Shown piece after piece: positions 1 through 3,891 of a stretch of DNA of 64,000 nucleotides (positions are counted from its first letter, which is position 1; every line of letters begins with the position of its first letter). Location of the stretch: contig JANQKC010000025.1 in the NCBI GenBank assembly GCA_028281325.1, positions 1 through 64,000 of the forward strand, read 5' to 3'. This DNA comes from Alphaproteobacteria bacterium. Lineage in GTDB: Bacteria > Pseudomonadota > Alphaproteobacteria > UBA8366. Under the pieces are notes generated by a model, which searched no databases, was not told the origin of the DNA, and saw only the letters and a program-made list of their open reading frames with translations. A program made the translations under genes and the position numbers.

Positions 1-23
1 GTCCGGGGTTCAGCCACGCCGAC

Positions 24-99
24 GTCCCCTTCGTCTAGTGGCCTAGGACGCCGGCCTCTCACGCCGGAAACAGGGGTTCGACTCCCCTAGGGGACGCCA
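24..99 (+). tRNA. tRNA-Glu (anticodon CTC)
   Basis: A full cloverleaf can be drawn. The acceptor arm pairs GTCCCCT with AGGGGAC, the anticodon stem pairs CCGGC with GCCGG around a loop carrying CTC, and the T arm contains GGTTCGACTCC. The discriminator base is G and CCA is encoded at 97-99. CTC reads GAG, so this is a glutamate tRNA. It lies immediately left of a low-GC accessory block. Confidence 0.95.
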
Positions 100-542
100 A
101 ATTTCCTTCATCCCATCTCTGGTCCCGCTGCTTGCGCGTTCAATGCCGCGACATCGCCATCCTGTTCCACAGGGTGATCATCCCCACCGTCGCCGTCAGC
201 ACGCCGATCTCCTTTTTCCGAAAAGTTCTCCCGCAGCCGGGCGCGGAGGAGGCGAGGGCGCGTTAGATTGGTTCCCGATTGAGCTGCTGCGCAAATCTGC
301 AGAAGGCATCACTGTCGGAGCCTGTCGATAGCACTAAGGGAGCGAAGGAGGTGTGGTTTTGAGTTGCTGGGAGGCACATCATCACCGGATACGCATCGCT
401 GGACGGCACGTTGTGAACACCAGGAATGAGCATAATCGAATTTGCGGAATTTTTGCTTGACCCTTGTAATTTGATTGAATGCCCCCATATCTAGAGTAAT
501 TACTTATATATTTACAATATATTGATTTGCGATCCTTGGTTG
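100..542. other. intergenic region with a gene remnant
   Basis: No intact gene is visible between tRNA-Glu and the MBL-fold gene. Positions 141-247 hold a decayed minus-strand coding fragment, described separately. From about 400 onward the DNA becomes clearly AT-richer, marking the left border of the accessory block. The upstream 450-540 part is AT-rich and could hold the promoter of the MBL gene, but I cannot pick a convincing one. I found no copy of the tRNA 3' end that would act as an attachment site. Confidence 0.5.
141..247 (-). pseudogene. carboxymuconolactone-decarboxylase-like C-terminal fragment, frameshifted
   Basis: Read on the minus strand this fragment encodes the typical C-terminal end of CMD/AhpD-like proteins: an FSEK motif, then a stretch ending LTATVGMITLWNRMAMSRH and a stop. 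An extra base in an A-run (around 215-220) breaks the frame between FSEK and the rest, and the N-terminal part is missing. It is about 85 percent identical at DNA level to 3605-3710 in the same orientation, which lacks the extra base. Both look like remnants of related genes on either side of the accessory block. Confidence 0.6.
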
Positions 543-1688
543 ATGATGGCTCCTTCTGGATTAAAAATATCCAACTCAATTGGCGTTGATATCGAGTTCT
601 TGCCCGTCGGCAAAGGCCAAAAAGCTGGCGACGCAATCGTGATTCGGTACGGAGATCCCGAGAATTATCAAGTTATGGTCGTCGATGGTGGCACTGAAGA
701 GGCAGGCCAGCTTATCGTCGAGTACATAGGCATGTATTGCGGGAACGCTTGTCCAATCGCCCACATTGTGTGTACGCATCCGGATGGTGACCACGCCTCC
801 GGACTACGAACCGTCATTAAGCACCGTCGGGTTCAGAACCTGTGGATTCATCGGCCGTGGTTGTACGCAGAGGCAATAGCATCGCTATTTAGGTCGGCCA
901 ATTGGACTTCCGGCGGACTGGATCGGGCATTGCGGAGCCAATATCCTTTGATAGAAGAACTTGAATCGCTGGCACTCATATCTGGTACTGCGATAAATGC
1001 ACCGTTCGAGGGAGCCACGATAGGCCCTTTCACCGTTTTGTCGCCCTCGACATGGGCTTACGCGCACCTACTCCCACAGTTTCGACGCACTCCGGACTCT
1101 AACGTCGATGCAATAAAGGCCGCGAACATGTGGCTTGGCGAACCAGGGCAGATCGCCACATTATTTGCCGCGGCTGGTGCGAAGGTCGCAAACTGGCTGC
1201 CGGAGTGGTGGGATTTCGAGCTTTTGAGCGAATTTGCTGCGACGTCAGCAGAAAACGAGACTAGTGTCGTACTACACGGTGATTTTGGCACTACATCGGT
1301 CTTGTTGACAGCTGACGCTGGCGTTAACGCTCTTATGTGGGCACACAAATTTGCTGTAGCTCAAGGAATAGACCTGACAAGGACGGCTCTTGTCCAAGTT
1401 CCGCACCACGGCAGCCGCCGGAATGTCACGCCGACCGTCCTCGATTTGATCGTCGGGCCGAAATTACCATCCGGCTCGACCACGAAGAAGATTGCGATAG
1501 TGTCGGCTCCAAAGGATGACGAGGTTCACCCTCGCCGGGTTGTTGCGAATGCCTTTCTTCGTCGCGGAGCACCTGTGTACGCTACACAGGGACGACCGGT
1601 CCGTTGGTATCGTGGAATGGAAGTACGGCCTCACTACACTTCAATGGCCCCTCTTCCTTTTTTTGGGGCTGTCGAGGCCGAAACCTAG
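543..1688 (+). CDS. MBL-fold metallo-hydrolase, ComEC C-terminal-domain-like
   Basis: This 381-residue protein has the metallo-beta-lactamase signature HPDGDH (residues 79-84) after a strand ending VVDGG, and a later PHHGS motif (around 287-291). This pattern is that of the soluble MBL domain of the competence protein ComEC and its stand-alone relatives. No signal peptide or membrane segment is evident, so it is probably cytoplasmic. ATG codons at 543 and 546 are preferred; a TTG at 522 is possible. It is the first of three same-strand genes and is followed within about 30 bp by a membrane protein gene. Base composition is AT-richer than the chromosome around it. Substrate unknown; nucleic acid or nucleotide hydrolysis is plausible from the family. 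A role in phage defence is inference from the company it keeps. Confidence 0.75.
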   Translation: MMAPSGLKISNSIGVDIEFLPVGKGQKAGDAIVIRYGDPENYQVMVVDGGTEEAGQLIVEYIGMYCGNACPIAHIVCTHPDGDHASGLRTVIKHRRVQNLWIHRPWLYAEAIASLFRSANWTSGGLDRALRSQYPLIEELESLALISGTAINAPFEGATIGPFTVLSPSTWAYAHLLPQFRRTPDSNVDAIKAANMWLGEPGQIATLFAAAGAKVANWLPEWWDFELLSEFAATSAENETSVVLHGDFGTTSVLLTADAGVNALMWAHKFAVAQGIDLTRTALVQVPHHGSRRNVTPTVLDLIVGPKLPSGSTTKKIAIVSAPKDDEVHPRRVVANAFLRRGAPVYATQGRPVRWYRGMEVRPHYTSMAPLPFFGAVEAET

Positions 1689-1717
1689 GAGAGAAGGAGT
1701 GTTGGGCAGGAAGGATC

Positions 1718-2344
1718 GTGAACGAAGGTAAATTCGACGCATATGCCTATGTCGGAGTGATCGCGCCTGGAACCGTGTTGGCATTCGGCGGCTTATCGGT
1801 TTTTCCGGATTTGAGTCCCTTCTCGTCTAAGGCCACTTTTACCGTTGGTGATTTTGGCCTTTTCCTTCTGATCGCTTTTGTCCTTGGACACTTGGTTCAG
1901 TCCGTCGGCAATGTTGTAGAAAATTTGTGGTGGTTTCCATTCGGAGGCATGCCGACCAACTGGGTCCTAGAGAAGCCTGACAGACTTCTCGCAGCGTCTC
2001 AGGTTGAGAATCTGAACGCTAAACTTGCGACCGACTTCGGCATCGAAAACGGGTTGCTCAGCCTCAGTAAGCACAACTGGATTCCGATTACCCGCCAAGT
2101 CTATGCGAAGGTCAACGCCGCCGGCCGTTCGGGGCGCGCCGACACCTTTAACCAGATCTACGGGTTGACGCGGGGCGTCTCGGCTTCGTTTTTTGCTTTG
2201 GCGATCGTCGTCCTAGCTGTCGACGTTAATGATTGGAAGACTGCGCTAATTCTCACGATCCTCGGAATGGTAGCATTGACCAGAATGCACCGATTCGGGA
2301 AGCATTACGCCCGTGAAGTATTTGTCCAGTATTTGGATTTGTGA
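1718..2344 (+). CDS. predicted membrane protein of unknown function
   Basis: I do not recognise the family. From a GTG start at 1718, preceded by AGGAAGG, the product is 208 residues. There is a hydrophobic segment near residues 12-25, a second near 40-60 and a hairpin-like pair of hydrophobic segments near 155-190 (rich in FFALAIVV and LILTILGMV), leaving a central soluble stretch of about 90 residues. The upstream frame is open further, but the Shine-Dalgarno spacing favours 1718. It sits between the MBL-fold and DUF4062 genes with short gaps and the same AT-rich composition, so the three probably move and act together. Confidence 0.6.
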   Translation: MNEGKFDAYAYVGVIAPGTVLAFGGLSVFPDLSPFSSKATFTVGDFGLFLLIAFVLGHLVQSVGNVVENLWWFPFGGMPTNWVLEKPDRLLAASQVENLNAKLATDFGIENGLLSLSKHNWIPITRQVYAKVNAAGRSGRADTFNQIYGLTRGVSASFFALAIVVLAVDVNDWKTALILTILGMVALTRMHRFGKHYAREVFVQYLDL

Positions 2345-2393
2345 GTGACTACCATGTGCCGATATGGGCACCGTAACCTAATCTTGGAGTGAG

Positions 2394-3317
2394 ATGCCTC
2401 AGACAACCACCCTATATCGAGTACTGATTGCGTCACCGTCGGACGTAAAGAAGGAAAGGTCGATCATACCTGAGGTGATCGCTGCCTGGAACGCGACTTT
2501 CATCGACGAGTATGATGCGGTGCTGCACCCTGTTTTGTGGGAAACCTCTGTATATCCGGAGATGGGTGAGCGGCCTCAGGCTATCGTTAATAAGCAAATC
2601 GTTGATCGTTGCGACATTTTGGTGGGTGTCTTTTGGACGAGGCTTGGAACGCCGACGGGTGTAGCGGAATCGGGAACCGTGGAGGAGGTTGACGAATTTT
2701 TGAATAGCGGAAGACCGGTCATGCTGTATTTTTCGCAAGAGCCGGTGGCACTTCAGAGCATCGATACCGAACAATTGGAATCGGTCAAACAGTTCAAAGC
2801 AAAATGCATGGGCCAAGGCATCGTTTCAGAGTATGAAACAATCCATGAGCTTCGGGAAAAAATTACGCATGATCTCTCAAGAGCCATGCAAGTATTACAG
2901 GATAACGCAGGTGCGAAACCCTCTGATACGGAGATGGGTGCAGTCGAAAACCATCTTGTTACCCTGAGGTCATTTGTTTCTGAATTTGGGCGATTCTATC
3001 GTCGACTTGATTCTGAATGGCAAGCCGAGAGGGATAGCGAACCGCTTAGCATCGACGAGGGCAAGTATATTTTGGAGCGTGCGTGTGATGACTTGCTCGA
3101 CTACAAGTCGGACGTTGCGCAGGATCGAGACGGCAAATTGTCGAAGCTACTAGGCGAAGTGATCCAGGAATTAAAGGCCCTTCAACAGCACCAAGTGTAT
3201 ATTGATGGTGGCATTTCGTATCGGCAATTTTGGCAAGATGGTACTGTCACGATTGATAAAATCAAGGACGCGGTTGGCTTACTAGAAAGCGCGCTTGCGA
3301 AATCTGAGGTGCCATAA
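2394..3317 (+). CDS. DUF4062 domain protein
   Basis: The first 170 residues of this 307-residue protein match the DUF4062 pattern: an opening strand RVLIASPSDVKKER, a WETSVYPEMGERPQ stretch, then DRCDILVGVFWTRLGTPTG and ESGTVEEVDEF. The layout resembles Rossmann-like TIR or deoxyribosyltransferase folds that bind NAD or nucleotides; that link is fold-level inference. The remainder (about 175-307) is a charged helical region that could be an oligomerisation or sensor domain. The ATG follows a weak purine-rich site. It is the last gene of the accessory block; proteins of this kind are often seen in variable or defence-rich loci. Confidence 0.75.
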   Translation: MPQTTTLYRVLIASPSDVKKERSIIPEVIAAWNATFIDEYDAVLHPVLWETSVYPEMGERPQAIVNKQIVDRCDILVGVFWTRLGTPTGVAESGTVEEVDEFLNSGRPVMLYFSQEPVALQSIDTEQLESVKQFKAKCMGQGIVSEYETIHELREKITHDLSRAMQVLQDNAGAKPSDTEMGAVENHLVTLRSFVSEFGRFYRRLDSEWQAERDSEPLSIDEGKYILERACDDLLDYKSDVAQDRDGKLSKLLGEVIQELKALQQHQVYIDGGISYRQFWQDGTVTIDKIKDAVGLLESALAKSEVP

Positions 3318-3891
3318 ATATGTCCCTTTGGCAGATTGGAGTTTTTCCGGTTCCATATGGGACATGAGAGACAGTATCTGCGTATCGTTCCGAACAGATT
3401 CCCGGCTACTGAATCGCCACGCTTAGTCGAACCAGCCCGAGCTATTCGTATCTCCAAACCGACTTTGAAAATAATCCCAAATCAAACCTATAAATAGATT
3501 GCCTCCATGCCGAATGACATGGACTTCCTGATTTCGAGGTGCGTCTACATACATTCTTTAAGTTTTCTCACGACATCCGAAAGCCATCATGGCCGCCCAC
3601 CCCTCAATGCCGCGAGATCGCGATCCCGTTCCACAGGTTGATCATCCCCACTGTTGCGGTCAGGACGCCGATCTCCTTCTCCGAGAAATGCCCCCATAGC
3701 CGAGCGCGGAGTGTCGTCAGGTCGGTCTTGGGATCGAGGGCGCCGAGGGCGGCGCTATTTTGACCATCGTCACCCGCCGGAGTCTCACAGAACGGGTGGA
3801 TCTCTGCGATTAGACTGGTCAATCCTGTTATCCTTGGCTAAGTCTAGAACCAAGACCGCGTATGACACCTGCAATTTCGAAGGCTTGGCCC
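3318..3891. other. intergenic right border of the accessory block
   Basis: The stretch 3318-3600 is AT-rich and holds no gene I can support. From about 3600 the composition returns to that of the chromosome, and 3605-3822 is a minus-strand gene remnant similar to the one at 141-247. The promoter for the glyoxalase II gene probably lies in 3823-3890. I see no integrase, transposase or terminal inverted repeat. Confidence 0.5.
3605..3822 (-). pseudogene. truncated carboxymuconolactone-decarboxylase-like fragment
   Basis: The minus strand encodes up to 72 residues ending in FSEKEIGVLTATVGMINLWN plus GIAISRH and a stop, the usual C-terminal signature of CMD/AhpD-like proteins. Full-length members have 150 or more residues and a CxxC-type active site, absent here. 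Residues before the match do not look like the family, so the gene is cut. The segment 3605-3710 is a diverged direct copy of 141-247; here the reading frame is still open. Confidence 0.55.

What the first reader, a model, noticed from the sequence alone, without database searches (positions are those of the whole stretch)
522..3317. Low-GC three-gene block (MBL hydrolase, membrane protein, DUF4062) beside tRNA-Glu
Seen: three tightly spaced genes with AT-rich composition, next to a tRNA and bounded on both sides by decayed copies of one gene. Known: MBL hydrolases with ComEC-type sites and DUF4062 proteins are often found in variable loci. Inference: an effector (DUF4062), a nuclease- or nucleotidase-like MBL protein and a membrane partner may make a defence or conflict system that has not, to my knowledge, been described in this form.
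Basis: partly seen in the sequence, partly recalled or inferred. Interest (0 to 1): 0.6.

Follow-up and report, generated by a model that had tools for sequence, protein, structure and literature searches.

The report
Acquired nuclease-membrane pair plus NADase gene
A small block of foreign-looking DNA beside a tRNA gene carries what look like two bacterial anti-virus devices side by side: a nuclease-like enzyme paired with a membrane protein, a combination found in many other bacteria but not tested in any paper found here, and a separate enzyme that probably destroys the cell's NAD+ to stop an infection.

Summary
Three intact, closely spaced genes (522-3317) form the most AT-rich stretch of the window. 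They lie beside tRNA-Glu, between two remnants of one carboxymuconolactone-decarboxylase (CMD) gene. The sister species keeps the conserved outer genes and one intact CMD gene but lacks the block. None of the three genes was found in the 10 other family members searched, so the block is acquired.

A three-gene system is not supported. The MBL and the four-helix membrane protein are a recurring pair: 31 of 43 MBL sequence clusters have such a neighbour, and searching with the membrane protein alone leads back to a neighbouring MBL gene in four of five cases. The MBL is PADLOC candidate PDC-M48B. The membrane protein is a divergent relative of PDC-M48A/Csx27. DUF4062 shared none of 149 MBL loci and none of 12 membrane-protein loci.

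The third gene encodes a DUF4062 TIR-like protein, a family shown in a May 2026 preprint to be antiphage NADases (Swarozyc). Its C-terminal domain differs from the Swarozyc-type domain.

Best reading: two defence modules side by side, a ComEC-like nuclease with a membrane partner plus an abortive NADase. Defence function is inferred, not shown.

The parts
24..99 (+). tRNA-Glu (CTC); left edge of the variable site, also the contig junction with C24
   Evidence: ARAGORN; 99-base overlap with C24; the same tRNA-Glu lies at this place in the sister species
140..226 (-). remnant 1 of the CMD-family gene (last ~28 codons)
   Evidence: intact gene in the sister species, L139:5980-6717
522..1688 (+). 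MBL-fold hydrolase, ComEC-like, PADLOC PDC-M48B; metal-ligand motifs THPDGDH and PHHGSR intact; likely start ATG 543/546
   Evidence: PADLOC 5.5e-96, Pfam Lactamase_B 9.6e-7, NCBIfam ComEC_Rec2 4.7e-9 (below cut-off), PDB ComEC competence proteins, invariant motifs
1718..2344 (+). four-helix (2+2) membrane protein of the MBL-partner family, Csx27/PDC-M48A-like
   Evidence: AlphaFold model pLDDT 90.5 with four long helices 8-28, 43-75, 139-168, 173-207; homologues beside MBL genes; profile links; relatives hit PADLOC Csx27 and PDC-M48A
2394..3317 (+). DUF4062 TIR-like (predicted NADase) domain, residues 1-172, with a C-terminal helical domain, residues 173-307
   Evidence: Pfam PF13271, PADLOC PDC-S60 5.4e-34, invariant E97/E98, fold matches to DNPH1/TIR proteins
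3604..3753 (-). remnant 2 of the CMD-family gene (last ~49 codons, 84% identical to the sister-species protein)

Best explanation
The block is two independent, horizontally acquired anti-phage modules next to each other at a variable site beside tRNA-Glu. Module 1 (522-2344) is a two-gene pair: a ComEC-like metallo-beta-lactamase-fold nuclease and an inner-membrane protein made of two helical hairpins joined by a cytoplasmic helical segment. The pair is a divergent member of the PADLOC candidate PDC-M48. Proposed mechanism (inferred): the membrane protein holds or gates the MBL enzyme at the inner face of the membrane; infection releases the gate, the MBL cuts DNA, and the membrane protein may also disturb the membrane. 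Module 2 (2394-3317) is a DUF4062 TIR-like enzyme. Its C-terminal helical domain senses an unknown phage component, the TIR-like domains assemble and hydrolyse NAD+ through E97 or E98, and the infected cell stops growing or dies before phage release. Shown here: gene content, recurrence of the MBL-membrane pair, acquisition of the block, intact catalytic motifs, TIR/N-glycosidase-like predicted fold. Inferred: defence function, nuclease and NADase activity of these copies, the gating step, and independence of the two modules in this host.
For: Pair: an adjacent 2-5 TM protein of 150-330 aa accounts for 63 of 130 MBL neighbours against 16 of 558 other genes, and 30 of 55 against 2 of 139 on viral contigs; after clustering at 60% identity, 31 of 43 MBL clusters have one. 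Reciprocal test: searching with the membrane protein alone found five distant homologues; four have an MBL gene as neighbour or in the same operon (L004, L100, L101, L095) and the fifth sits between HmaA and HmaB. L199 and L203 carry homologues of both genes in the window's order. Identity: PDC-M48B 5.5e-96; membrane-family relatives hit Csx27 (5e-8) and PDC-M48A (3e-4); hhalign 96-97% to MBL-adjacent families. DUF4062; NADase and defence roles of the family from PMC13174449. Acquired: absent from the 10 other family members, the sister species has an intact CMD gene and no block, AT-rich. Related MBL nucleases act in Hachiman, Avs, Lamassu and DRT systems (PMC12799240).
Against: No experiment exists for this block, and no phage data for PDC-M48 were found in the papers searched. 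No known defence system or mobile-element gene was seen in the first 12 kb of the window; the neighbours there look metabolic. The DUF4062 gene lies 49 nt behind the membrane gene with no terminator-like site found between them, so co-transcription and joint action in this genome remain possible. The membrane protein matches no solved structure clearly. No trypsin-like activator of the kind that unlocks related MBL nucleases is present.
Confidence: 0.6

Rival explanations
1. One three-gene abortive-infection system: the MBL-membrane unit senses infection at the membrane and passes a signal to the DUF4062 NADase, which executes the cell.
For: Same strand, gaps of 29 and 49 nt, all three AT-rich and absent from relatives; the only terminator-like site found lies inside the membrane gene.
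Against: DUF4062 shares none of 149 MBL-bearing loci and none of 12 membrane-protein loci; the same type of DUF4062 protein in Priestia has neither partner beside it; DUF4062 proteins in the Swarozyc work act alone (PMC13174449).
Confidence: 0.15
2. The MBL-membrane pair is not a DNA-cutting defence device but a toxin-guard pair: the membrane protein is a pore-forming toxin and the MBL enzyme removes a small-molecule activator (for example a cyclic nucleotide).
For: The membrane partner is Csx27-like and a related type weakly matches a CBASS 2TM effector; some MBL-fold enzymes degrade cyclic nucleotides (own knowledge).
Against: The closest matches of the MBL are ComEC nuclease domains and defence nucleases; no nucleotide cyclase gene among the neighbours seen.
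Confidence: 0.2
3. The block is cargo without defence function, or is already inactive: a decaying acquired segment.
For: It is flanked by gene remnants; no sigma-70-like promoter was found by a simple scan; one homologue (L095) has a broken MBL reading frame.
Against: All three frames are open and full length; MBL metal ligands, membrane-family motif residues and DUF4062 E97/E98 are conserved.
Confidence: 0.15

Closest known systems
PADLOC candidate PDC-M48 (A + B)
   Same: The MBL matches the PDC-M48B model PDLC04676 over its whole length (5.5e-96); membrane protein next door; a relative of the membrane protein matches PDC-M48A (L084, 2.8e-4).
   Different: The window's own membrane protein does not reach any PADLOC model; the membrane partners fall into several families.
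Swarozyc (DUF4062 TIR-like NADase; PMC13174449)
   Same: Same N-terminal domain with the conserved SGT.EE motif; single protein with a C-terminal extra domain.
   Different: The C-terminal domain is helical and unrelated by profile to the domain of Swarozyc-length homologues (hhalign probability 0.3%); the known portal trigger cannot be assumed.
Csx27 (type VI-B CRISPR accessory membrane protein)
   Same: Relatives of the membrane protein match the Csx27 model over nearly its full length (L084 5e-8, L102 5e-5, L012 1e-4).
   Different: The window copy itself does not match the model; partner is an MBL enzyme, not Cas13b.
MBL nucleases of Hachiman/Avs1/Lamassu/DRT (trypsin-MBL module, PMC12799240)
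   Same: Same ComEC-like MBL group (LmuA 4.6e-17, RTasMBL 1.3e-15, Avs1a 2.6e-6).
   Different: No trypsin-like protease or helicase/ATPase partner; the partner is a membrane protein.
ComEC/Rec2
   Same: MBL domain with HxDxDH and PHHGS motifs; enzyme tied to a membrane partner.
   Different: Separate genes, small four-helix membrane protein, no competence channel domain.

Membership tests
PDC-M48 (PADLOC candidate) | MBL component matching a PDC-M48B model | tested here: met
   PDLC04676, E=5.5e-96, model positions 6-355 of 357
PDC-M48 (PADLOC candidate) | Adjacent PDC-M48A membrane component | tested here: inconclusive
   Adjacent multi-helix membrane protein present; it does not reach the M48A model itself, but a profile built from its family aligns at 96% probability with A7, which contains L084, a weak M48A match
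PDC-M48 (PADLOC candidate) | Protects against phage | not testable with these tools
   No experiment; no paper naming PDC-M48 found
Swarozyc | DUF4062 TIR-like domain with catalytic Glu | tested here: met
   PF13271 above its cut-off; E97 and E98 invariant in 16 aligned sequences; fold matches to DNPH1, TIR-STING, AbTir and SARM1. Which of the two Glu residues is catalytic was not tested
Swarozyc | Winged-helix auxiliary domain that binds phage portal | tested here: inconclusive
   C-terminal profile unrelated to that of Swarozyc-length homologues L116/L118/L120 (probability 0.3%); the KpSwz sequence itself was not available, so the comparison is indirect
Swarozyc | NADase activity and abortive defence | not testable with these tools
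   Inference from PMC13174449
Csx27 | Match to the Csx27 model | tested here: not met
   No PADLOC match for the window protein; only its relatives match
Csx27 | Encoded with Cas13b | tested here: not met
   No Cas13b-sized cas gene among the ORFs of the first 12 kb (read by eye); partner is MBL
[quoted passage not shown]
   No protease in the block; Pfam finds only the MBL and DUF4062 domains

The most novel reading that the evidence does not exclude
The MBL-membrane pair is an uncharacterised widespread two-gene defence family in which a membrane protein of the Csx27 superfamily directly gates a ComEC-like nuclease, and Csx27-like proteins are a general membrane module exchanged between MBL pairs, E1/JAB operons, Hma and Cas13b systems; in this host it is coupled to a DUF4062 NADase with a new sensor domain.
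Probability: 0.2. Interest if true: 0.7.

Novelty: new variant of a known kind. Interest (0 to 1): 0.45.

Why it matters
If right, an untested PADLOC candidate gets a defined two-gene composition: a ComEC-like nuclease plus a membrane protein from a family also seen inside Hma and, as Csx27, beside Cas13b. That makes a clear test possible: does a membrane protein take the place of the trypsin-like gate that controls related MBL nucleases? The DUF4062 protein adds a Swarozyc-like NADase with a different sensing domain, which may detect a trigger other than the portal protein.

Tried and rejected
Three-gene system: rejected as a conserved unit. Integrative element using the tRNA: no att repeat, no integrase ORF in the block. 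MBL single-sequence scan of genome contigs and the DUF4062 single-sequence and membrane-family scans of viral contigs gave nothing; broader alignment queries worked. DUF4062 in annotated phage records: no match. PDB fold search with the membrane protein gave no clear relative: Foldseek best E=0.77, VIA Z at most 5.6; weak resemblances to MotA/ExbB stator proteins and alpha-pore toxins were not used. Foldseek rows to Ras-like GTPases for DUF4062 were set aside as general alpha/beta similarity. hhalign between the window's membrane family and another membrane-partner type (A6) is not significant (8%), so the partners are not all claimed as one family. Literature searches for PDC-M48, 6A-MBL and MBL-transmembrane pairs found no described system. 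The recurrence counts are conditioned on loci fetched through the MBL, and profile A15 was built mostly from MBL-adjacent proteins; the reciprocal search with the membrane protein is the less biased test.

Full report
What is there. The window starts at a contig junction inside a tRNA-Glu. Downstream lie an MBL-fold hydrolase (522-1688), a membrane protein (1718-2344) and a DUF4062 protein (2394-3317), all on the + strand and all intact. The block has GC 0.518, lower than all 573 same-size windows tested outside it (minimum 0.562), and GC3 of 0.52-0.61 against 0.76-0.89 in the flanking genes checked.

How it got there. Two short segments, 140-214 and 3604-3678, are 89% identical. Both are the 3' end of a CMD-family gene that is intact in the sister species G001. 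In G001 the order is upstream gene, tRNA-Glu, another membrane-protein gene, CMD gene, further genes, globin, dehydrogenase. In the window the outer genes are the same, but the interior is CMD remnant, MBL, membrane protein, DUF4062, CMD remnant, gloB. The upstream gene of the window genome lies on contig C24. None of the three genes was found in the 10 other genomes of the family; matches in the wider order are weak and partial. The block is therefore an acquired replacement at a variable site. No att repeat and no integrase ORF were seen, so the route of entry is unknown; recombination through the CMD copies is a guess.

The MBL-membrane pair. The MBL matches PADLOC PDC-M48B over its full length (5.5e-96) and more weakly LmuA, RTasMBL and Avs1a. 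ComEC proteins are its closest solved relatives by sequence. The metal-ligand motifs are invariant among homologues. Eighty homologous loci from genomes, nine plasmid loci and the stronger ones of 59 loci from viral contigs were examined. The gene next to the MBL is a 150-330 aa protein with 2-5 predicted TM segments in 63 of 130 cases, against 16 of 558 for other genes (genomes and plasmids), and in 30 of 55 against 2 of 139 on viral contigs. After clustering MBLs at 60% identity, 31 of 43 clusters have such a neighbour. A profile of the membrane family (A15) hits 79 of 5,808 ORFs, 69 of them within 300 nt of the MBL; the profile's own 20 rows are among these, so this count is partly built in.

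Reciprocal test. Searching plasmids and about 780 genomes with the membrane protein alone found five distant homologues. Four have an MBL in the same cluster: Polymorphobacter plasmid L004, L100 in divergent orientation, L101 in an MBL - ThiF/JAB - membrane operon, and L095 with a broken MBL frame. The fifth lies between HmaA and HmaB. Two viral contigs, L199 and L203, carry homologues of both genes in the window's order. This is the strongest evidence that the two genes belong together.

The membrane protein. The AlphaFold model (pLDDT 90.5) is all-helical with four long helices in two hairpins and a helical middle segment. Charge counts agree with a cytoplasmic middle segment and C-terminus. 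Profile comparison links the window's family to two groups of MBL-adjacent membrane proteins (96-97% probability) but not to a third (8%). Relatives match the PADLOC Csx27 model and, in one case, PDC-M48A. No solved structure is a clear match.

The DUF4062 protein. Residues 1-172 are a DUF4062 domain with E97 and E98 invariant in 16 aligned sequences. The model of this part is confident (block means 81-97) and matches DNPH1 (Z 12.2, 127 aligned, 2.8 A), TIR-STING (Z 11.6, 135 aligned, 3.0 A), plant TIR, AbTir and SARM1. A May 2026 preprint shows that DUF4062 proteins are TIR-like NADases and that bacterial ones (Swarozyc) sense the phage portal through a winged auxiliary domain and deplete NAD+ (PMC13174449). 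The window protein's C-terminal domain is unrelated by profile comparison to that of Swarozyc-length homologues and was otherwise found only on Priestia plasmids. Its trigger is therefore unknown.

One system or two. DUF4062 shares a locus with neither the MBL (149 loci) nor the membrane protein (12 loci) outside this genome. The Priestia homologue has neither beside it. Two neighbouring modules are the simpler reading, although the small gaps and the absence of a terminator-like site between the genes leave co-transcription and joint action open here.

Mechanism. For module 1, a membrane-held ComEC-like nuclease whose activity is controlled by its membrane partner is proposed. Related MBL nucleases in Hachiman are gated pro-nucleases opened by a protease (PMC12799240); here no protease is present, and the membrane protein is the obvious candidate for the gate. 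For module 2, NAD+ depletion after an unknown trigger is proposed. Both are inferences; nothing here shows activity or protection.

Verdict. A real, acquired block: one pair that is listed as a candidate but not functionally described in the papers found, and one new-architecture member of a family described in 2026. New variant of known kinds; moderate interest.

Noticed in passing
L102:1062-8762 (G449:C106): A Csx27-like membrane protein of the window's family is inserted between the HmaA helicase and HmaB methylase genes.
   Followed up: partly
L101:1913-6039 (G577:C1): Operon of an MBL-fold protein, a ThiF/JAB E1-like protein and a homologue of the window's membrane protein; similar MBL-ThiF neighbourhoods lie on Burkholderia glumae and Acinetobacter plasmids (L009, L011).
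   Followed up: partly
window 1-99 and L002 (G000:C24): The contig junction lies in tRNA-Glu; the gene on C24 is the gene found upstream of tRNA-Glu in the sister species, so C24 probably precedes the window.
   Followed up: partly
L095:231-1342 (G153:C86): The MBL gene next to a membrane-protein homologue is split into two overlapping reading frames: decayed or a sequencing error.
   Followed up: no
L148 and L170:3001-4392: A DUF4062 domain fused to a methyltransferase-like C-terminal part on a viral contig.
   Followed up: no
L139:4793-5923 (G001:C34): In the sister species a different membrane-protein gene occupies the space between tRNA-Glu and the CMD gene, so the site is variable in both species.
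   Followed up: no
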